From Streptomyces europaeiscabiei (lineage in GTDB: Bacteria > Actinomycetota > Actinomycetes > Streptomycetales > Streptomycetaceae): a stretch of 64,000 bases of DNA. Both the position numbers and the translations under genes were made by a program. The notes under the pieces are model-generated. The model did not search any database and had not been told where the DNA came from. It saw only the letters and a program-made list of their open reading frames with translations. Numbering within the stretch: the first letter of the stretch is position 1; each line of letters opens with the position of its first letter. The stretch spans positions 1,116,001 to 1,180,000 of the forward strand of contig NZ_CP107841.1 in assembly GCF_036346855.1 (NCBI RefSeq), in the 5' to 3' direction. Shown in pieces: positions 7,331 through 57,577 of the stretch.

Positions 7331-9039
7331 TGCGACTCCCGGCTCACCTCGGAGCCGCTGGAGCCGATGAGGAAGTCGAGGTCTGCGCCGGTGTCGGCCT
7401 GCAGGACATGGTCGACGTAGAGGCGTTCCCAGCCGCGCCGGGGGGCGGCGAAGCCCTCGACCGTGACCCGGCTCGGCTCCCGGCGGGCGAGTTCGTCGGC
7501 GGGTACGTCGACGTCGATGCGGCGGGCCCCGACGTCGAGGGTGATGAAGTCCCCGGTACGCACGAGGGAGAGCGGGCCGCCGGCGGCGGCTTCCGGGGCG
7601 ACGTGCAGCACAACCGTGCCGTAGGCCGTGCCGCTCATCCGGCCGTCGCAGACGCGGACCATGTCACGGACGCCCTGTTCCAGCAGCTTCTTCGGCAGCG
7701 GCATGTTGGCCACCTCGGGCATGCCCGGATAGCCCTTGGGTCCGCATCCGCGAAGGACGAGGACGGAGTCGGCGTCGACATCCAGGTCGGGGTCGTCGAT
7801 GCGGGCACGGAAGTCCTCGATGGAGTCGAAGACGACGGCCCGGCCCCGGTGGCGCAGCAGCTGCGGGGAGGCGGCGGCCGGTTTGACGAGCGCGCCGTCG
7901 GGGGCGAGGTTGCCGCGCAGTACGGCGATGCCGCCCTCGGCGACCAGCGGTTCGGAGCGCGGGCGGATGACCTCGGCATCCCAGACGGTGGCGTCGTCGA
8001 GGTGGTCGACCAACGGCTCACCGGTGACGGTCAGCGCGTCGGGGTCGAGCAGGTCACGGACCTCGCGCAGGACGGCGAGCAGCCCTCCGGCGCGGTGGAG
8101 GTCCTCCATGAGGAAGCGCCCGGCCGGCTGGAGGTCCACGAGGACCGGCACCCGGGAGCCGACGCGGTCGAAGTCGTCGAGGGTGAGGTCGATGCCCAGG
8201 CGGCCGGCGATCGCCAGGAGATGGACGACCGCGTTGGTCGAACCGCCGATCGCGGCCAGAGCCACGATCGCGTTGTGGAAGGACGCCCTGGTCAGGAAGG
8301 TGCCCGGCCGGCGGTCCGCGCCCACCATGTCCACGGCCAGCCGACCGGTGCGGTGCGCGGCTTCGAGGAGCCGGCTGTCGGGCGCGGGTGTGCCCGCCAC
8401 ACCGGGAAGCACCGTGCCCAGCGCCTCGGCGACCAGCGCCATCGTCGACGCCGTCCCCATGGTGTTGCAGTGCCCCCGGCTGCGGATCATCGCCGATTCG
8501 GAGCGGGTGAACTGCTCCTGGGAGAGCGTTCCCGCCCGTACCTCCTCCGACAGCTGCCACACCCCGGTGCCGCAGCCCAGGAGGCCGCCGCGGAAGGTGC
8601 CGTTGAGCATCGGCCCGCCGGGGACCACGATCGCGGGCAGGTCCACCGACGCGGCGGCCATCAGCAGCGACGGGATCGTCTTGTCGCAGCCGCCGAGGAG
8701 GACGACCCCGTCGACGGGGTTGGCCCGCAGCATCTCCTCCGTGGCCATCGCGGCCATGTTCCGCCAGAGCATGGCGGTGGGCCGCACGTTCGTCTCGCCC
8801 AGCGACACCACCGGTAGGTCCAGCGGTATGCCGCCCGCCTCGTACACACCGTTGCGCACCGAGGCCGCGACCTCGTCCAGATGCGCGTTGCACGGGGTCA
8901 GGTCCGAGGCGGTGTTGGCGATGGCGATCTGCGGCCGGCCGGTGAAGGCGTCGCCCGGCACACCCCGCCGCATCCACGCCCGGTGGATGTAGGCGTTGCG
9001 GTCCTGTCCCCCGTACCACTGCGCACTGCGGAGCGTCAC
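7327..9039 (-). CDS. IlvD/Edd family dehydratase, probable sugar-acid dehydratase
   Basis: A 570-residue dehydratase of normal IlvD/Edd length. Key motifs are GGCDKTIPSLLMAA (cluster cysteine), RSRGHCNTMGTAST (second cysteine) and IGGSTNAVVHLLAIA; a third conserved region is CDGRMSGTAYGTVVLHV. The family carries an Fe-S cluster and Mg2+ and removes water from 2,3-dihydroxy acids. The N-terminus (LRSAQWYGGQDRNAYIHRAW) and the IclR plus alcohol-dehydrogenase neighbours favour an aldonate dehydratase (arabinonate or galactonate type) over valine/isoleucine synthesis. The start is GTG at 9039 with GGAAAGGG 6 nt upstream; the open frame extends to 9264, but that part overlaps the IclR gene. Confidence 0.88.
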   Translation of the reverse strand: MTLRSAQWYGGQDRNAYIHRAWMRRGVPGDAFTGRPQIAIANTASDLTPCNAHLDEVAASVRNGVYEAGGIPLDLPVVSLGETNVRPTAMLWRNMAAMATEEMLRANPVDGVVLLGGCDKTIPSLLMAAASVDLPAIVVPGGPMLNGTFRGGLLGCGTGVWQLSEEVRAGTLSQEQFTRSESAMIRSRGHCNTMGTASTMALVAEALGTVLPGVAGTPAPDSRLLEAAHRTGRLAVDMVGADRRPGTFLTRASFHNAIVALAAIGGSTNAVVHLLAIAGRLGIDLTLDDFDRVGSRVPVLVDLQPAGRFLMEDLHRAGGLLAVLREVRDLLDPDALTVTGEPLVDHLDDATVWDAEVIRPRSEPLVAEGGIAVLRGNLAPDGALVKPAAASPQLLRHRGRAVVFDSIEDFRARIDDPDLDVDADSVLVLRGCGPKGYPGMPEVANMPLPKKLLEQGVRDMVRVCDGRMSGTAYGTVVLHVAPEAAAGGPLSLVRTGDFITLDVGARRIDVDVPADELARREPSRVTVEGFAAPRRGWERLYVDHVLQADTGADLDFLIGSSGSEVSRESH

Positions 9040-50394: not shown

Positions 50395-50680
50395 ACCGAC
50401 TTTGAAGCGGTTGTGCCGGAGGGGACGGGAGCCTTCCGCAGCTCGCTCGGCGGCCGTCCACAGCGGCTCCGAGGAGCGCTCGCCGATGAGGTGCCTCTCG
50501 ACGGCGGGCAGCTTCCACGGCACGGTGCCCACTCCCCCGGCGGCGACCTTCGCCTCCCGGATCACCCCGGCCTGTTCACGATTCGGGGTGTTGCCCGGTC
50601 GCAGCAGGAGGTCGGCGAAGGGGACCTGGCGTTCCCCGTCCGGGCCCAGCAGATGCTCGGTCGCAGCGCCGGGCTTCGTC
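50395..50680 (-). pseudogene. Remnant of a xanthine-dehydrogenase-type FAD subunit
   Basis: On the minus strand the segment ATEHLLGPDGERQVPFADLL, then GNTPNREQ, and KVAAGGVGTVPWKLPAVERHL and GSRPLRHNRFKV is the C-terminal part (CO_deh_flav_C) of FAD-binding subunits of xanthine/CO-type dehydrogenases. The FAD-binding N-terminus, part of the middle and the end are missing. No MoCo or Fe-S subunit gene is near. It lies between the oxidase and a kinase fragment. Confidence 0.65.
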
Positions 50681-50689
50681 AGCGGTTGG

Positions 50690-50886
50690 TCACCGTGCCG
50701 GCTGTGGGGAAGTCGCTGCAGGTCACAGCCGTCGACGACGGGCGCGGGTCCGACGGCCTGGAGACCGGTGTGGGTCTGGCCTCCATGCGGCGGCGGGCGG
50801 AGACGCTCGGCGGCACGTTCCGCATCACGTCGAAGGCATACGAAGGCACCACCGTGGCCGCGACCGTGCCACTGAACGCCCGGTGA
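50690..50886 (+). pseudogene. C-terminal fragment of a NarL-type sensor kinase
   Basis: The plus-strand words LQVTAVDDGRGSDG, GVGLASMRRRAETLGGTFR and TTVAATVPL are the G1/G2 ATP-lid region of a HATPase domain. No DHp domain, sensor region or partner frame precedes it, so only the last 65 codons survive. It faces the intact response regulator at 50928 but belongs to a different kinase gene. Confidence 0.72.
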
Positions 50887-50927: not shown

Positions 50928-51587
50928 TCAGGAGGTGCCGAGGCCCGCGTCCCTGGCCCGAGCGACGGTGGCGGCACGGTCGGTCGTTCCGATCTTGTTC
51001 ATGACGGTCGACACATGGTTGCGGACGGTTTTCTCCGCCAGGAACAGACGCCGGGCGATGTGGTGATTGCTGTGGCCCTGGGCGACGAGTTCGAGGATCT
51101 CGCGCTCGCGTTCGGTGAGTTCGGGGAAGACCTGGGCGGCGTAGGCACGCTGCGCCTGAGTGAAGAAGGCGTTGATGCGCCGCGCCACCGCCTCGCCGTA
51201 GACCGCGTTCCCCGACGCGACGGCGAGCACCGCGCGGGCGATCTCGGTACGGTCGGCGCCTTTCAGAAGGTAGCCGCGGGCGCCCGCGCGGAGCGCTCCG
51301 ATGAGGGCCTCGTCGTCCTCGTGCATCGTCAGGACCAGGACCCCGATTCGGTCGTCGCGGGCGTGGATCTCGCGGATCGCCTCGGTGCCGCCGAGGTTGG
51401 GCATGGCGAGATCGGTGAGGACGACGTCGGGGCCGGTCCGCTCGACCACTTTCAGGAGTTCCGCGCCGTCGGCCGCCTCCCCGACGATCTCGATGCCGTC
51501 GTGGCCTGCCAGGGCGGCCGTGAGACCGAAGCGGTACATCGGATGGTCGTCGGCGACGACGATCCGGACGGGCACTGCTCCGGTCAT
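50928..51587 (-). CDS. NarL/FixJ-family response regulator
   Basis: A 219-residue protein. The receiver domain (about 7-125) has the acidic pair in VVADDHPM, phospho-acceptor Asp in DVVLTDLAMPN and the Lys in YLLKGADR. The LuxR-type HTH is at about 150-215 (LTEREREILELVAQGHSNHH, then EKTVRNHVSTVMNKIG). Its ATG at 51587 overlaps the kinase TGA as ATGA, so the pair is coupled. Target genes are unknown. Confidence 0.95.
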   Translation of the reverse strand: MTGAVPVRIVVADDHPMYRFGLTAALAGHDGIEIVGEAADGAELLKVVERTGPDVVLTDLAMPNLGGTEAIREIHARDDRIGVLVLTMHEDDEALIGALRAGARGYLLKGADRTEIARAVLAVASGNAVYGEAVARRINAFFTQAQRAYAAQVFPELTEREREILELVAQGHSNHHIARRLFLAEKTVRNHVSTVMNKIGTTDRAATVARARDAGLGTS

Positions 51588-53539
51588 GATCCCTCCAGTG
51601 GCAAGGTGGCGGTGATGATCGTCCCGCGGGCCGCGGGCTCGACGATGAGGCTGCCACCGCGGGCTTCGGCACGGCGGCGCATCGACGGCAGGCCGACACC
51701 CGAGGGTGTCCCGGCAGGGATCCCGCGGCCGTCGTCGGTGACGGTGATCCTCAACAGTCCGCCGTGCGCCGCCACCGTCACCGTGGCCGCTCGCGCGGCG
51801 GCGTGCCGGGCGATGTTCGTGGTGGCTTCGGTGATGATGCGGTAGGCCGTGCTCTCCACCTCCGGTGGGAGCGTGGGCAGTTGGGCCGCCAGGATACTGA
51901 TGGACACGGCCGGCGCCAGGGTCTCGGCGTGCCGCCGCACGGCCTCAGCGAGCCCCAGCCGGTCCAGGACGTCGGGGCGGAGATCGTCGATGATCCGCCG
52001 GATCTCCGCCACCGCAGTGACCACCTCTTCCCGGGTACGGGTCAGCAGCGCGCCGGCCTCCACGGTGTTGCCCAGCGACAACTGGTCCGTCGCCGCCTGC
52101 AGCCCGAGCCCCATGCCGGCCAGCGACGGCCCCAGACCGTCGTGGAGGTCATGGCGCAGTCGGTCGCGTTCCACCCGGGTGACCTCGACGACCTGGTCCC
52201 GTTGAGCGGTCACCACATCGGCGAGCTCCAACGCCCGTACGACCACGGCGACTTGCTGAGCCAAGGCCGCCAACAGCCGTTTGTCCTCCCTGCCGTACGC
52301 TTCGCCCGGCGTGCGGTCGGACAGCGACATGGTGCCGAGTGTCCGCCCCGCCAGGCGCAGTTCCAGGGTGAGCCCGACCGTCGTGCTTCGGCCGAGCGCC
52401 GCGAGCGTCGCACCCCGGGCGTCCGTCACCCGGATCCCTGGGGCGCGCACGGCCTGCGTGACGGCGTCCAACGCGGCGGGCAGCAGGTCGTGTTCGCCCG
52501 CGTCGGCCATTCGGCTGCCCAGCCGCGCCAAGGCCCGCAGTGGGTCCCGGCGCCCGCCGTAGACCCACCAGTCCACAGCCCGTTGCAGACGTTCCCGGGC
52601 CGGGGCGAGGCCCACCGCGACCACCGCGGCCGACAGCACTCCCGGCAAGGCACTGCGGTCCCACACCGCGCCCACGGCTGTCGTCACCAGTAGGTACACG
52701 GTGATCACGACAGCCGTGAGCAGTGCGTAGACCAGGCCGCGCCGCATCACCGTCTCGATGCCGAGCATCCGGTAGCGCAGTACCCCGACGGCCACCGCGA
52801 CCGGGACGAGTACGCCGAGACTCGCGTGGACAACCGGTCCGGTGAAGAACAGGGCGGTCAGGAAGACCGCCAGCACGCACATCATCCACGCCAGTTGCTG
52901 TCGCATCGGGGGCTCGGACCGGATCAGCCGGACGACCGCCTCCACAGTGACGGCGAGCGCGCTCAGGCCGATGAGGAGAAGGCACACCGCGTCCAGGGCG
53001 CCGATCACGGCGGACGGCAGGGACGCCGGCGGGGTGCCACCGGGCACGATGTCGTCGTACGCCTGCGGGTCGAACGCCGTGCCCACTGTCAGCACCACGA
53101 TCGCCGTCCCGGCAGCGCCGACCGGCCACCACAGCCACCACGTGTTCGGCCGGCCCTGCGGATAGAGCGCCAGCACGAGGGTGGGCAGCGCGAACAGGGA
53201 CGGGACGTGCGCCCCGCCCGCCACGGCGGCGGCGACCGACGCCCCCGGCCAGTCCGGCTCCTCAACCGCCACACCGTGCCCGCCGTATGCCGCCAGGCCG
53301 ACCTGCCAGGTCCCGGAGCCACCGATGGCGAGGAACAGCCACCCCAGAGGATTCCGCGGCCGTAGCGAGACCAGTACGGCCCCGGTCACGGCCCATGACA
53401 CCAGCACCGCCCCCAGCAGAACCACCTGGAGACCGCCCCCGTCGCCCCCCGGCGTCCCACCGGCCGACCCCGACACCCACCCCGCGAACGCCACCGCCCC
53501 TACGCCCGACAACGGCACCGCCCACACGCCCCCGCGCAC
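51584..53539 (-). CDS. NarL-type sensor histidine kinase
   Basis: A 651-residue kinase with many hydrophobic segments in the first 320 residues (about nine), a GAF-like middle (about 330-430) and HisKA_3 with the phospho-acceptor His in RLRHDLHDGLGPSLAG. The C-terminal HATPase domain includes AEIRRIIDDLRPDVLDRLG, TDDGRGIP and GVGLPSMRRRAEARGG. The GTG at 53539 with GGAG 7 nt upstream is the best start; the frame reaches 53677. It transfers phosphate to the response regulator coded immediately after it. The membrane part suggests sensing of a lipid- or envelope-related signal. Confidence 0.9.
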   Translation of the reverse strand: MRGGVWAVPLSGVGAVAFAGWVSGSAGGTPGGDGGGLQVVLLGAVLVSWAVTGAVLVSLRPRNPLGWLFLAIGGSGTWQVGLAAYGGHGVAVEEPDWPGASVAAAVAGGAHVPSLFALPTLVLALYPQGRPNTWWLWWPVGAAGTAIVVLTVGTAFDPQAYDDIVPGGTPPASLPSAVIGALDAVCLLLIGLSALAVTVEAVVRLIRSEPPMRQQLAWMMCVLAVFLTALFFTGPVVHASLGVLVPVAVAVGVLRYRMLGIETVMRRGLVYALLTAVVITVYLLVTTAVGAVWDRSALPGVLSAAVVAVGLAPARERLQRAVDWWVYGGRRDPLRALARLGSRMADAGEHDLLPAALDAVTQAVRAPGIRVTDARGATLAALGRSTTVGLTLELRLAGRTLGTMSLSDRTPGEAYGREDKRLLAALAQQVAVVVRALELADVVTAQRDQVVEVTRVERDRLRHDLHDGLGPSLAGMGLGLQAATDQLSLGNTVEAGALLTRTREEVVTAVAEIRRIIDDLRPDVLDRLGLAEAVRRHAETLAPAVSISILAAQLPTLPPEVESTAYRIITEATTNIARHAAARAATVTVAAHGGLLRITVTDDGRGIPAGTPSGVGLPSMRRRAEARGGSLIVEPAARGTIITATLPLEGS

Positions 53540-53757
53540 AGTCACACTCCATTCTGCGGCGGTCCGACCCTGACGCACAGCGTTCGTGGCGGCATCACCC
53601 CGGGTTGTCCCGCGATACAGGGCTGCGGTGACGGCCACCGTCGCCGCCCGGCCGTCGGGGAACACCTCGGGCAGCATGGTGCAGCGGCATCAGGCACAGG
53701 GCCCACAGCCATCCCGTCGGCCAAGCGGCCCAGGCTGCCCCCGGCCATCGCCACGCC

Positions 53758-55040
53758 ATGGCTGCGGTCGTTCGCCGGACCCTGCTGTACGGCGGGCTCA
53801 CCGCGCTGGTCCTGTGCCTGTACGCGGGCGTGACCGCCGCCGTCCCCGCCGCCGTCCCCACCAGCCCGTGCCCGCCGTCGCCGCCGCCGCGGTCGTGGCC
53901 ACGCTGCTCGCCCCTGCCCGTGACCGTTTCCAACGGGTCGTCGACCGGGCGGTGACGGGGCCCGGAACGACCCCCTCCGGCCCTTCCACCGCCTGGGGAC
54001 CGAAGTGTCGGCGGTGTCGGCGGCGTCCGTGGACATCCTGCCGACCGTCGTGGCCGCCGTCGCCGCCGCCGTGCGAGCTCCCTACGCGGCCGTCGTCACA
54101 GCCGAGGGCACCACTCTGGCCGCGACCGGAACGGTGGGCGCCCGGGCCGTGGTCCGTCCGCTCACCCTTGCCCGGACCCACCTCGCCGACCTCGTCGTCC
54201 GCCCCGCGGACGAGGACGGCCTCACCGCTGCCGACGCGCAGATCGTCGACGCGTTGACCGTCCCGGTCTCGCTGATCGTCCATGCCCAGCGCCTCAACGT
54301 CGAACTGGTCGCCGCACGGAAACGCGCCGTGGGCGCGGCCCTGGCCGAGCGGGACCGGATCCGCCATGACCTGCATGACGGACTGGGCCCCTCGCTGTCG
54401 GGCGTCGCGCTTGGCCTGCAAGCCGTCCTGGAAGCAGTACGGACGGGACGGCCGTCCGTGCCGGACGGCCACGATCAGCCGGGGCCGTGGCCAGCGCCCT
54501 CCAAGTCGAGGAACTGGTGAGCCGATTGCGGGCGGAGGTGGGTCGCGCGGTGGAGGACGTGCGGCGCATCATCGACGCCCTGCGCCCCTCGGCCCTCGGC
54601 CCTCGGCCCTCGGCCCTCGGCCCTCGGCCGCCAAGATTCTGGTGTCCGCCCTTCAGGAACGCGCCACCTCCATCACCGACCGGACAGGACGACGTCCGAC
54701 CATCACGGTCGAGGCGACCGACCCCTTCCCACAGCTCCCGCTCCCCGCCGAGACCGCTGCCTACCGGATCACCGACGAGGCCCTCACCAACGTGGTCCGA
54801 CACGCACAGGCCACACGCTGCGTCGTCCGCCTGTCCACCAATACCGGCACCGGCGCTGTGCTGACCGTCGAGGTGCACGACAACAAACGTGGGCCGACCG
54901 CACCTTGCCGTGGAAACGGCGGCGTCGGCCTGGTGTCCATGCGCAGGCGGGCCGAGGAACTCGGCGGCACATTCCGGATCGCAGTCGACGACACCGGCAA
55001 CACCGTGACGGCGCAACTCCCCTTGAACACAGGCCAGTAG
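53758..55040 (+). pseudogene. Frameshifted sensor histidine kinase
   Basis: A second NarL-type kinase can be followed over three frames: VRRTLLYGGLTALVLCLYAGV (frame 1), PAVAAAAVVATLLAPARDRFQ (frame 2), RAPYAAVVTAEGTTLAAT to IRHDLHDGLGPSLSGVALGLQ (frame 3), VEELVSRLRAEVGRAVEDVRR, then the HATPase part LVSALQERATSITDRTG, TAAYRITDEALTNVVRHA and GGVGLVSMRRRAEELGG. Each change is a small indel. One is a 7-bp repeat array (54586-54627). A start with ribosome binding site is missing. Confidence 0.85.
54586..54627. repeat. 7-bp tandem repeat CCCTCGG, six copies
   Basis: Six perfect copies of CCCTCGG occupy 54586-54627, inside the decayed sensor kinase, in the segment joining the DHp and ATPase parts. 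Each copy changes the reading frame by one base. Confidence 0.93.
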
Positions 55041-55225: not shown

Positions 55226-56293
55226 ATGCCCGTACCCCAGATCCGTGCGAGGACACCGGAGATCACCGGGTCCCGGAACGCGCAGCCGCCGGAGATCGCT
55301 CCGGTACCCGCAGGCGACCAGGCAGGCCAAGCGAACGGGATGGACCAGACGGCTGCACTCGCGGCCCGGCCGCCGTCACTGGAGCGCTTCTTCCCCGGCT
55401 GCTTCGAAATCCTCCTGCCCGCCATCAGCACCGCGCTCCCTCATATCTTCGCGGCGTTCCGCGTCGAGAACCACTCGCGTACGGCGGAGGCGGCGCTGTC
55501 CGACCAGGAACTGGACCGCGCCTTCGCGGAGTTGCTGTCACTCGTCGCCCCGCTGCTGTCGGAGGTGCTGCCCGTGCTGATCGAGCAGATCCACGACTTC
55601 GGCGAGCAGCGAGCCCGTGCGGGAGCGGGACCCGTCGACGACGAGGCCCTGGAACGTTTCCTTCCTCCGCTGCTCGGCGCGCTCGTGCCCGTTCTCGTCG
55701 AGGCACTCCCGCCGGCTCTGCAGGGCGTCGGCGGGCTGATCGGGGGCCTGTTCGGCGTTGGCCGCGAGGGTGAACCGCCCCTGCCCCACGTCATCGACAG
55801 CGAGGTGTCGAGCCGCTTCCTCGGCCCGATCCTCCAGGCCCTCCTGCCCGCCGTCGCCGAGAGCCTCCCGGTGCTCTTCTCACTGATCACCGGTCAGGGT
55901 TCACAGGTGTCGCGCGACATGGGCGTCAGCTGGGCGGACTTCGCGGACCGGCACCGTCTGTGGGACAACGACATGATCCGGGTCTGGACGGAGCCGATCG
56001 ATGATCCGAACGCTGTGGAGATCGCACTCGAACTGGCGCGGCACAAGACATGGGGGAAGGCCATCCAGGTCGAGGACGACAGCGGTGGGTTCGTCGCCGA
56101 GGTCTCGGTGAAGGACAGCAAGAAGGTCGATGTCGTGCGTGTGGACGCCCGCACCATCGTCGACGCGGACGGTTACCTTCTCTTCAAGAAGGCCAAGCTG
56201 TTCGGTGTCATGACCGGCATGTACCGCCTGAAGACCGGCGGCCTCCAGCAACTCCGCGGACGGCGGGCGACGTTCTACTGGTCTGCGGACTGA
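55226..56293 (+). CDS. Unrecognised protein with fourfold amphipathic repeat, caspase partner
   Basis: A 355-residue protein of no recognised family. Four copies of a 24-residue amphipathic unit lie at residues 52-75, 96-119, 142-165 and 185-208, about 44 residues apart. Each follows the pattern R/D-x-F then L-LLP then LP-L, such as ERFFPGCFEILLP and SSRFLGPILQALLP. Residues 213-355 are a polar beta-rich domain (SWADFADRHRLWDNDMIRVW to RRATFYW). There is no signal peptide. ATG 55226 has GAGAGG upstream. It ends 15 bp before the caspase gene and is certainly its operon partner. A membrane-disrupting or scaffold role is a hypothesis only. Confidence 0.7.
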   Translation: MPVPQIRARTPEITGSRNAQPPEIAPVPAGDQAGQANGMDQTAALAARPPSLERFFPGCFEILLPAISTALPHIFAAFRVENHSRTAEAALSDQELDRAFAELLSLVAPLLSEVLPVLIEQIHDFGEQRARAGAGPVDDEALERFLPPLLGALVPVLVEALPPALQGVGGLIGGLFGVGREGEPPLPHVIDSEVSSRFLGPILQALLPAVAESLPVLFSLITGQGSQVSRDMGVSWADFADRHRLWDNDMIRVWTEPIDDPNAVEIALELARHKTWGKAIQVEDDSGGFVAEVSVKDSKKVDVVRVDARTIVDADGYLLFKKAKLFGVMTGMYRLKTGGLQQLRGRRATFYWSAD

Positions 56294-56308
56294 GAGGAGC
56301 ACGCACCG

Positions 56309-57577
56309 ATGCGAACGCTCCGATGGGGAGACAGCGGCGACGACGTCGCCGCACTGCAACAGTCGCTTCAGGCACTCCGGTACTACGGCGGTGCCGTCGA
56401 CGGCCGGTTCACGGCACTGACCAGGAGCGCTGTGGTGGCGTTCCAGCGCGCTCGCGGGCTGATCGCCGACGGTGCCGCCGGACCGGCGACACTGGCCGCT
56501 CTCGGTCTCGGTCTCGGTCTCGGGGAACCCGCCTCGCCGGTCCCGCAGTTCCCGCCGCCGCAGGACGGCGCGCAACAGCCACCGCCTGCGGGAGCCCGTG
56601 CACTGTCCCTGCACATCGGGCTCAACAGCGTCGACAAGTCCGCGTACGGCGGCTGGTCCGGCCGACTCAGCGGCGGCGAGCAGGACGCGCACACCATGAC
56701 CCGGATCGCCAGGGCCGAGGGGTTCACCACGCGCCGGCTGCTCAGCGGGGACGCGACTGTCCCCAACGTGCTCGACGCGATCACGGACGCCGCACGCCGA
56801 CTCGGCCCCGGGGACTTCTTCCTGCTCACTTATGCCGGACACGGCGGGCAGATCGCCGGCACCGACGGGGAAGACGAGACCGACCTGGAGAACGAGACCT
56901 GGGTGCTCTACGACCGGATGCTCGTCGACGACGAGTTGAGCGCCGCGTTCGCGGAATTCCGCGAAGGCGTGAACCTTGTCCTCGTCTCGGACAGTTGCCA
57001 CAGCGGTACCCTCTACCGTCGCGGTCTCGAAGTGTCCGGCGTCGAGGAGACCGAGTACGCGGCGGTGAAGCGTGCATTCTACCAGAACCTCGGTGTGACT
57101 CGGGATCCGCTGAGTGCCGCCGGCATCGTCCAGCACCTGGTCGCGGACCTAAGGGACGAACAGCACGACGAACAACGCACCATGGCGCGTGTCGTGACAC
57201 GGGAGATCCCGCTGGACGTCAACGCCGAGGTCGTTCTGGCCGATAGGCGGTTCTACCGGGACATCCAGAACAGAGCCCGCTCGCGCTCCTCGATCATGGC
57301 CAGTGGTGTGGCCTTGAGCGCCTGCCAGGACAACCAGCTCTCGCAGGAGGTCAACGGCGCAGGAGTCTTCACCACCGCCCTGCACCGCACCTGGGCCGAC
57401 AACGGGTTCACCGGCTCCTACGACGTCTTCCACCGCGCGATCGTCGCGCAGATGGGCCCGAACCAGACCCCGGAACTGGGCCTGTTCGGCAGGCGCCCGG
57501 AAAGTCTGCTGTCCCGCACACCGTTCAACCCCGGCAACCGCGGTGCGACCGCCACCAGGAGATTGCGGTGGTGCTGA
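56309..57577 (+). CDS. Caspase-family (metacaspase-like) protease with peptidoglycan-binding domain
   Basis: A 422-residue protein. Residues 1-66 are a PG_binding_1 domain (LRWGDSGDDVAALQQSLQAL). A Gly/Leu and Pro-rich linker (67-96) joins it to a C14 caspase domain (98-410). Catalytic dyad: H178 in YAGHGG and C230 in VSDSCHSG. The acidic GTDGEDETDLENETWVL between them resembles the calcium site of metacaspases, and VDDELSAAF follows. No signal peptide is seen. GAGGAG precedes ATG 56309. It follows its partner by 15 bp. Bacterial caspases often act in cell-death or defence modules; here the role is inferred only. Confidence 0.9.
   Translation: MRTLRWGDSGDDVAALQQSLQALRYYGGAVDGRFTALTRSAVVAFQRARGLIADGAAGPATLAALGLGLGLGEPASPVPQFPPPQDGAQQPPPAGARALSLHIGLNSVDKSAYGGWSGRLSGGEQDAHTMTRIARAEGFTTRRLLSGDATVPNVLDAITDAARRLGPGDFFLLTYAGHGGQIAGTDGEDETDLENETWVLYDRMLVDDELSAAFAEFREGVNLVLVSDSCHSGTLYRRGLEVSGVEETEYAAVKRAFYQNLGVTRDPLSAAGIVQHLVADLRDEQHDEQRTMARVVTREIPLDVNAEVVLADRRFYRDIQNRARSRSSIMASGVALSACQDNQLSQEVNGAGVFTTALHRTWADNGFTGSYDVFHRAIVAQMGPNQTPELGLFGRRPESLLSRTPFNPGNRGATATRRLRWC

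What the first reader, a model, noticed from the sequence alone, without database searches (positions are those of the whole stretch)
55226..57577. Caspase with a peptidoglycan-binding domain and an unknown operon partner
A metacaspase-like protease (His178, Cys230) carries an N-terminal peptidoglycan-binding domain and follows by 15 bp a gene of no recognised family. Many bacterial caspases sit next to the substrate they activate. The partner has helical hydrophobic repeats and a separate C-terminal domain, as expected of an effector held inactive until cut. This is inferred; a cell-wall-linked or self-killing role is only a possibility.
Basis: partly seen in the sequence, partly recalled or inferred. 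Interest (0 to 1): 0.8.

Follow-up and report, generated by a model that had tools for sequence, protein, structure and literature searches.

The report
Wall-binding caspase with conserved partner gene
In some soil actinomycetes a caspase-like protease carrying a cell-wall-binding domain is inherited together with an unknown neighbouring protein made of four oily helices and, usually, a beta-sandwich tail, which looks like a new two-part protease system whose purpose, perhaps controlled membrane damage, has still to be tested.

Summary
Partner: 55226-56293, no known family. Protease: 56309-57577, N-terminal PG_binding_1, Peptidase_C14, His178/Cys230. Gap: 15 bp.

The pair is conserved. The partner lies directly upstream in 4 of 4 fetched caspase loci with an N-terminal wall-binding domain (window, two Actinoplanes, one other Micromonosporaceae). 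It is absent from 44 of 44 other fetched genome or plasmid caspase loci and 25 of 25 viral-contig loci. In 67 Actinoplanes genomes, partner and this caspase type were found in the same 2. In Nonomuraea gerenzanensis the partner's stop codon overlaps the start of a wall-binding-domain protease of another clan CD family, clostripain C11: protease exchanged, wall-binding domain and partner kept.

The modelled partner has a disordered N-terminus, four hydrophobic helices at modest confidence and a confident beta-sandwich. Basic residues are concentrated between the helices. Both protease families are expected to cut after Arg/Lys.

Most likely: a protease-substrate or protease-cofactor unit acting at membrane or wall. 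Cleavage and killing are untested. Two Actinoplanes partners lack the tail, so cutting it off cannot be the whole mechanism.

The parts
55226..56293 (+). partner gene, 355 aa, no known family
   Evidence: ORF; 11 relatives incl. own cluster, 37 with the profile; 84% identical P0002 begins at the same methionine; no Pfam/NCBIfam family above cut-off
55400..55474 (+). predicted hydrophobic helix 1 (aa 59-83)
   Evidence: AlphaFold2 model, (block pLDDT about 63-66); hydrophobic peak
55502..55621 (+). predicted hydrophobic helix 2 (aa 93-132)
   Evidence: block pLDDT about 63-74
55640..55741 (+). predicted hydrophobic helix 3 (aa 139-172)
   Evidence: about 71-79, under 50 from residue 167
55799..55891 (+). 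predicted hydrophobic helix 4 (aa 192-222)
   Evidence: about 47-72, under 50 up to residue 197
55898..55918 (+). low-confidence junction aa 225-231 with Arg230; candidate cut site (inferred)
   Evidence: pLDDT below 50 at 225-231; R230 invariant in 12 rows and 11 rows, but its column is not among those with R/K in 80% or more of the 41-row alignment; all 39 rows that reach aa 223-236 have some R/K there
55934..56290 (+). C-terminal beta-sandwich domain (aa 237-355)
56309..57577 (+). caspase-family protease, 422 aa, with N-terminal wall-binding domain
56333..56503 (+). PG_binding_1 domain (aa 9-65)
   Evidence: Pfam E 8.3e-18
56639..57457 (+). Peptidase_C14 domain (aa 111-383)
   Evidence: Pfam E 5.6e-17; closest solved chain 3bij (GSU0716), E 2.2e-56
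56840..56842 (+). catalytic His178
   Evidence: invariant in 16 rows
56996..56998 (+). catalytic Cys230 in DSCHSG (the Asp two residues before it is the presumed basic-P1 pocket residue)
   Evidence: invariant in 16 rows
50928..53677 (-). response regulator (50928-51587) and histidine kinase (51584-53677), named by eye, divergent from the pair; relatives lie at the other three N-terminal wall-binding-domain caspase loci
   Evidence: tblastn: kinase and regulator hits in L054 and L055, regulator hit in L154; 0 of 38 control Streptomyces caspase loci
53907..55028 (+). pieces of a broken second histidine kinase directly upstream of the partner
   Evidence: tblastn pieces; 42-67% identical to the intact kinase

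Best explanation
The two genes are one functional unit: a protease of clan CD that carries a peptidoglycan-binding domain, and a dedicated partner protein. The unit is kept together and the protease module can be exchanged (caspase C14 or clostripain C11) while the wall-binding domain and the partner stay (shown by comparison). I think it most likely that the partner is the protease's substrate. Contact with cell wall or wall fragments would concentrate or switch on the protease, which cuts after Arg/Lys in the flexible linkers of the partner, for example at the junction before the tail, and frees the hydrophobic helices to act on a membrane, damaging the cell or hyphal compartment. The beta-sandwich tail would be a targeting or holding domain that some members do without. 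Shown: co-inheritance, architecture, helices plus beta-sandwich in a model of modest confidence, R/K concentrated between the helices. Inferred: cutting, the wall trigger, membrane action, cell death.
For: Partner directly upstream in 4 of 4 N-terminal wall-binding-domain caspase loci, 0 of 44 other genome/plasmid loci and 0 of 25 viral-contig loci. Leaving out the window it is 3 of 3 against 0 of 44, about 1 in 16,000 by hand (loci not independent; two of the three were first met in the partner search). Same 2 of 67 Actinoplanes genomes hold both. Stop and start codons share a base (TGATG) in L154 and in Nonomuraea L041. Protease swap to PG_binding_1 + Peptidase_C11, E 2.9e-41. Partner and caspase distances correlate over eight pairs (Mantel r 0.88, p 0.003; six pairs with full-length partners r 0.64, p 0.05). 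Catalytic DSC (C14) and DAC (C11): in PmC11 the Asp two before Cys is named as the main S1 residue and the enzyme prefers basic substrates (passages of PMC4850288); prokaryotic caspase homologues are said to cut after positively charged residues (abstract start of PMC6426788). R/K make up 2-6% of helix residues against 9-17% of the linkers and 19% of the junction, with segment limits set by me; the column of residue 129 is R or K in 40 of 40 rows (K 26, R 14). Precedent for a bacterial caspase homologue cutting its neighbour: MaOC1 (abstract of PMC7935541).
Against: No cutting or toxicity has been measured. The partners next to the caspase in both Actinoplanes loci have no beta-sandwich domain, so freeing helices from the tail cannot be the general switch. 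Arg230 is invariant only in the alignments of 12 and 11 rows; in the 41-row alignment its column does not reach 80% R/K, and the first linker has no R/K in 7 of 41 rows. Residue 129 lies in the last turn of a predicted helix, not in a linker, and two other fully conserved Arg (98, 197; 41 of 41) sit at helix starts, so conserved basic residues may be structural. R/K-rich linkers are also what one expects between hydrophobic helices. Neither protein shows an obvious N-terminal signal sequence by eye (no predictor run), so how a wall-binding domain meets the wall is unexplained. The helical half of the model is of modest confidence. Several members are only moderately hydrophobic (Nonomuraea peaks 0.92-1.84, Spirilliplanes-like 1.07-1.32). 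A. aureus also has a full-length partner with no protease beside it.
Confidence: 0.4

Rival explanations
1. The partner is not a substrate but the protease's regulator or membrane anchor, a constant 5' component as in the EACC1-caspase two-gene system: its hydrophobic helices sit at the membrane, sense damage and switch on the protease, whose targets lie elsewhere.
For: Same gene order (hydrophobic 5' gene, protease 3' gene) as EACC1 systems, where EACC1 is suggested to be a membrane-associated sensor (section read in PMC7159879). The partner is the more constant element: the protease changes family around it. Overlapping genes suit a fixed complex. One of 16 Nonomuraea-type members has a weak EAD1 hit, a domain of such systems (E 0.02).
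Against: The partner has no EACC1 hit and the caspase scores 17.5 bits against a cut-off of 140 in the EACC1-associated caspase model.
Confidence: 0.31
2. Holin-endolysin-like pair: the partner permeabilises the membrane so that the wall-binding protease reaches the cell wall and trims wall proteins during lysis or development.
For: Wall-binding domain on a protein with no export signal apparent by eye; hydrophobic helices in the partner; one weak holin hit (Phage_holin_7_1, E 0.096, 1 of 11 members).
Against: No partner match in 50,697 phage records and none confirmed in viral contigs. The protease classes cut proteins, not peptidoglycan (general knowledge).
Confidence: 0.12
3. A non-lethal role: regulated processing of a secreted or wall-associated structural protein during development, under a two-component system.
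For: A relative of the window's response regulator and/or kinase lies at all 4 N-terminal wall-binding-domain caspase loci and at none of 38 Streptomyces control loci; a gene ending in a LuxR-type region (by eye) is divergent from the pair in Nonomuraea; the beta-sandwich resembles adhesin-like folds, weakly.
Against: No signal sequence apparent; patchy distribution (clear full-length partner in 1 of 392 Streptomyces genomes) is unlike a core developmental gene.
Confidence: 0.15
4. Chance adjacency of two unrelated genes.
For: Rare in Streptomyces (1 full-length case in 392 genomes).
Against: 4 of 4, 2 of 2 in Actinoplanes, overlapping codons in two lineages, correlated divergence.
Confidence: 0.02

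Closest known systems
EACC1-caspase two-gene conflict system (Kaur et al. 2020, PMC7159879; one section and passages seen)
   Same: Two genes in actinomycetes: a hydrophobic, apparently membrane-linked 5' product and a 3' caspase; domains of the second gene are exchangeable
   Different: The partner has no EACC1 hit and four hydrophobic helices plus, usually, a beta-sandwich instead of one TM helix; the protease bears an N-terminal wall-binding domain; here the protease itself is exchanged for a C11 enzyme
Wall-binding-domain metacaspases (11 sequences, 1.6%, in Asplund-Samuelsson et al. 2012, PMC3501461; passages seen)
   Same: Same kind of fusion, a putative peptidoglycan-binding domain with a caspase-family protease
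   Different: The passages I saw describe neither the partner, its restriction to N-terminal fusions, nor the C11 swap
MaOC1 orthocaspase and its toxin-antitoxin neighbour in Microcystis (PMC7935541; abstract and outline seen)
   Same: A bacterial caspase homologue next to a gene whose product it cuts
   Different: Neighbour is a ParE/ParD-type toxin-antitoxin pair; no wall-binding domain is mentioned in the abstract
Bacterial gasdermin-protease pairs (recalled)
   Same: Protease beside a membrane-active substrate released by cutting
   Different: The modelled partner is helical plus beta-sandwich; gasdermin is not among the structural matches shown (which does not exclude it)

Membership tests
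Metacaspase / orthocaspase (Peptidase_C14) | C14 domain with His/Cys dyad and DSCHSG-type motif | tested here: met
   Pfam E 5.6e-17; His178 and Cys230; invariant in 16 rows; closest solved chain 3bij, then metacaspases
Metacaspase / orthocaspase (Peptidase_C14) | Cuts after Arg/Lys | not testable with these tools
   Inferred from the Asp two residues before Cys and from the family
EACC1-caspase two-gene system | 5' gene encodes an EACC1 domain | tested here: not met
   No EACC1 hit for the partner or for any of 11 and 16 family members in Pfam-A at E up to 1; that EACC1 has a Pfam model is recalled. One of 16 members has a weak EAD1 hit (E 0.02)
EACC1-caspase two-gene system | Caspase of the EACC1-associated type (NF047832) | tested here: not met
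   17.5 bits against a cut-off of 140
Bacterial gasdermin system | Partner has the gasdermin fold | tested here: inconclusive
   Model is four helices plus beta-sandwich; no gasdermin among the 50 rows shown, which does not exclude it
Bacterial gasdermin system | Protease next to a substrate that it cuts | not testable with these tools
   Adjacency shown, cutting not
PADLOC-listed defence system | Partner or protease belongs to a listed system | tested here: inconclusive
   Generic 'caspase' model E 3.7e-8 for the window protease; nothing for either partner or for the C11 protease
Phage lysis cassette | Partner found in phage or viral records | tested here: not met
   No match in phage records; none confirmed in viral contigs. 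Whether phage genes lie near the bacterial loci was not systematically checked

The most novel reading that the evidence does not exclude
The partner is a polyprotein of four brevinin-like (recalled resemblance) hydrophobic helices strung on Arg/Lys linkers, and the wall-binding protease is a cytoplasmic alarm: when the wall is breached or wall fragments reach the cytoplasm, for example during phage lysis, binding them switches the protease on, which chops the partner into several membrane-lytic peptides and kills the compartment. A caspase or a clostripain can serve as the alarm protease.
Probability: 0.12. Interest if true: 0.87.

Novelty: new variant of a known kind. Interest (0 to 1): 0.62.

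Why it matters
Wall-binding-domain caspases have been listed since at least 2012; I found no target for them in print (listings and passages only). A dedicated, co-inherited partner gives them a concrete candidate substrate or cofactor that can be tested in a tube. The exchange of a caspase for a clostripain around the same partner would show that what matters is a wall-tethered Arg/Lys protease and not the caspase as such, which bears on how protease-driven death or defence modules are assembled.

Tried and rejected
Chance adjacency: rejected. EACC1 system: rejected as membership. Phage or plasmid cargo: no partner in phage records or confirmed in viral contigs; in the plasmid collection only the chromosome-sized Nonomuraea record. 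Weak profile hits (LPD7, 4 of 11 members, best E 0.008; phage tape measure, 6 of 11, best E 0.0004) read as composition, not kinship. A 7-residue proline repeat as the family signature: in excess (p below 0.05) in 8 of 10 members tested, not in the other two, so not used.

Rows set aside. Contig-length matching used 11 partner clusters and the 120 listed of 675 caspase clusters; 5 of 11 matched, P0002/P0049 was dropped because the sources differ, 4 were kept; the own pair itself does not match by this criterion (5,915 and 11,556), so a missing match says little. Partner search in Streptomyces: 4 of 392 genomes matched: own, G122 (C-terminal domain only), and two borderline ones (E 1.5e-4 and 1.0e-3) set aside as probable chance. 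Of 47 other caspase places I fetched 39. Of the 7 other genomes I looked at G815, G173 and G328, not at G1045, G1060, G1084, G1113. Of 16 plasmid caspase records I fetched 2. Of the 4 C14 places in A. aureus only the wall-binding one was examined. Loci reach about 5-6 kb either side, less at contig ends, so a partner further away would be missed. Genome searches score only a limited number of candidates per genome (4 to 31), so absences are not absolute. The wider samples found only the own genome: 1 of 396 in the phylum, 1 of 226 in the class; I do not know whether they held any Nonomuraea.

One search was a first version of the co-occurrence scan with partly gapped input; one search replaces it. 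One search stopped part-way on a gap character; its remaining members are.
Full report
WHAT IS THERE. The window lies in a 10.95-Mb genome (own contig C1, 1116001-1180000) that I take for a Streptomyces, from named close relatives and not from a label. Gene A at 55226-56293 (+) encodes 355 aa. Gene B at 56309-57577 (+) encodes 422 aa and starts after a 15-bp gap. Gene B has PG_binding_1 at residues 9-65 and Peptidase_C14 at 111-383, with His178 and Cys230 in place. It is the only C14 match in this genome at E up to 0.001. Gene A matches no family above a curated cut-off. Its 84% identical relative P0002 starts at the same methionine, so the start at 55226 is likely right.

WHO ELSE HAS IT. The protein search gave 11 relatives of gene A including the own cluster. 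In genomes it is rare: in 392 Streptomyces only the own genome has a clear full-length match, and one other (G122) has the C-terminal domain alone. Samples of 396 genomes of the phylum and 226 of the class gave only the own genome. In 67 Actinoplanes genomes it occurs in 2.

THE PAIRING. I searched for caspase relatives separately and asked what stands next to them. In the same 67 Actinoplanes genomes, the caspase alignment (E up to 1e-15) matched 42. In 40 of them the match covers mainly the wall-binding domain (one reaches model position 134 of 429). Only G777 and G1178 match through the caspase region, and they are the two with the partner. In both, the gene directly upstream of the caspase is a partner. 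A sample of 63 genomes of the family, searched with the caspase alignment only, gave four with a match: A. aureus (G777) again, one new caspase with the N-terminal domain, one with C-terminal domains and one with none. The new N-terminal one, whose printed sequence agrees by eye with the Spirilliplanes protein P0039, has the partner upstream with stop and start codons sharing a base. Taken together, the partner is present at 4 of 4 N-terminal wall-binding-domain loci, 0 of 3 C-terminal ones, 0 of 41 without that domain (39 Streptomyces, one Rhodococcus plasmid, one Micromonosporaceae), and 0 of 25 viral-contig caspases. The window is one of the four, and two others were first met through the partner, so only one of the four is fully blind. 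Loci of one genus are not independent; the hand-calculated odds (about 1 in 16,000 without the window) overstate the case.

MORE PAIRS. Protein clusters carry the length of their longest contig. Four of 11 partner clusters share it with one of the 120 listed caspase clusters from the same sources: P0003/P0015 (10,024,984, Streptomyces sp. NBC_00638), P0004/P0016 (12,058), P0008/P0018 (5,879), P0009/P0068 (6,898). All four caspases begin with the wall-binding domain. For these four, identity to the window is 0.65/0.66, 0.59/0.59, 0.51/0.53 and 0.51/0.48 for partner/caspase. The partner changes faster in the more distant pairs: 0.36/0.53 for the Spirilliplanes-like pair, 0.22/0.37 and 0.29/0.43 for the Actinoplanes pairs. 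Across eight pairs the two distance matrices correlate (Mantel r 0.88, p 0.003; six pairs with full-length partners r 0.64, p 0.05). Shared species history also produces such a correlation.

THE PROTEASE CAN BE EXCHANGED. In Nonomuraea gerenzanensis (L041) the partner relative (7761-8759, about 30% identical) shares the last base of its stop codon with the start codon of a 515-aa protein with PG_binding_1 (E 5.2e-16) followed by Peptidase_C11, the clostripain family (E 2.9e-41). C11 and C14 are different families of clan CD. Both carry an Asp two residues before the catalytic Cys (DAC and DSC). In the solved C11 enzyme PmC11 this Asp is named as the main S1 residue and the enzyme prefers basic substrates (passages of PMC4850288). 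Prokaryotic caspase homologues are also said to cut after positively charged residues (abstract start of PMC6426788). I could read this neighbourhood in one Nonomuraea only.

REGULATORS. Relatives of the window's response regulator (50928-51587, -) or histidine kinase (51584-53677, -; both named by eye) lie at all four N-terminal wall-binding-domain loci and in none of 38 Streptomyces control loci searched at the same threshold; in L154 it is the regulator only, 29% identical. A kinase and regulator hit also lies at one C-terminal-domain locus (L155), weaker regulator hits at another (L149), and kinase pieces beside the C-terminal-domain-only gene of G122 (L157). In Nonomuraea a large gene ending in a LuxR-type region (by eye) is divergent from the pair. 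In the window, pieces of a second, broken kinase (53907-55028, +) lie between the regulator genes and the partner.

VARIANTS. In both Actinoplanes loci the partner next to the caspase ends right after the fourth helix, without the sandwich (209 and 222 aa). A. aureus has in addition a full-length partner about 6 kb upstream with no protease beside it. In G122 the sandwich stands without helices; I took 119 aa from an inner ATG of a 216-aa reading frame.

HOW IT MOST LIKELY WORKS. Shown: co-inheritance, architecture, exchange of the protease. Inferred: the partner is cut by its protease in basic linkers, which frees hydrophobic helices that act on a membrane, and the wall-binding domain brings the protease to wall or wall fragments. 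The variants without the sandwich mean that the tail is not the universal lock; if cutting matters, cuts between helices must matter there. The main rival is that the partner is a membrane-bound regulator of the protease, as suggested for EACC1 (section read in PMC7159879). On checking, the weaker family-wide conservation of Arg230 and the place of residue 129 led me to lower the substrate reading from 0.42 to 0.40 and the polyprotein reading from 0.13 to 0.12, and to raise the regulator rival from 0.30 to 0.31 and the non-lethal rival from 0.14 to 0.15.

WHAT IS KNOWN. Metacaspases with a putative peptidoglycan-binding domain were counted in 2012 (11 sequences, 1.6%; passages of PMC3501461), and 70 of 217 metacaspase operons had no known function (passages). 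A bacterial caspase homologue cutting its neighbour is known (abstract of PMC7935541). Searches for caspase with peptidoglycan-binding, Streptomyces and metacaspase (0 papers), metacaspase with PG_binding_1 (0 papers), a five-term search with Actinoplanes and Nonomuraea (1 paper, unrelated by its title) and the listings showed no description of this pair. The library holds open-licence papers only.

VERDICT. A real two-gene unit, undescribed as far as these searches reach. Not a member of the EACC1 system; gasdermin membership unresolved.

Noticed in passing
L043 80-5842, L149 6478-11985, L155 8115-10199: Caspases with a C-terminal wall-binding domain have their own conserved upstream neighbour: an unknown protein of about 1000-1080 aa (cut by the contig end in L155) in 3 of 3 loci (Deinococcus plasmid and two actinomycetes; 31-34% identity to the Deinococcus one), preceded in 2 of 3 by an unknown protein of about 780-820 aa (48% identity over 710 residues).
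   Followed up: partly
53907-55028 (+) and 50644-50877 (+): Pieces of broken histidine kinases on the + strand, 42-67% identical to the intact kinase at 51584-53677; the first set lies directly upstream of the partner.
   Followed up: partly
L157 4542-6075 (-): In Streptomyces G122 the partner's C-terminal domain stands without helices beside a gene for a protein with a hydrophobic stretch and no Pfam hit, and next to kinase pieces.
   Followed up: partly
L054 10474-12843 (+): Directly after the Actinoplanes aureus wall-binding caspase lies a 789-aa protein that looks like a trypsin-like protease fused to a hydrolase (named by eye); matches to one or other half lie in 12 of the 41 fetched loci of caspases without a wall-binding domain.
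   Followed up: partly
L002 12107-15118 (-): A 1003-aa thermolysin-like (Peptidase_M4) protein lies between the two partner copies of A. aureus.
   Followed up: no
L042 5989-9313: On a Rhodococcus plasmid a caspase without wall-binding domain faces a HEXXH peptide-modification gene and a radical SAM gene.
   Followed up: no
L086-L110: 25 IMG/VR viral contigs encode caspase-family proteins, none with a wall-binding domain on the caspase or the partner nearby in the stretch held.
   Followed up: partly
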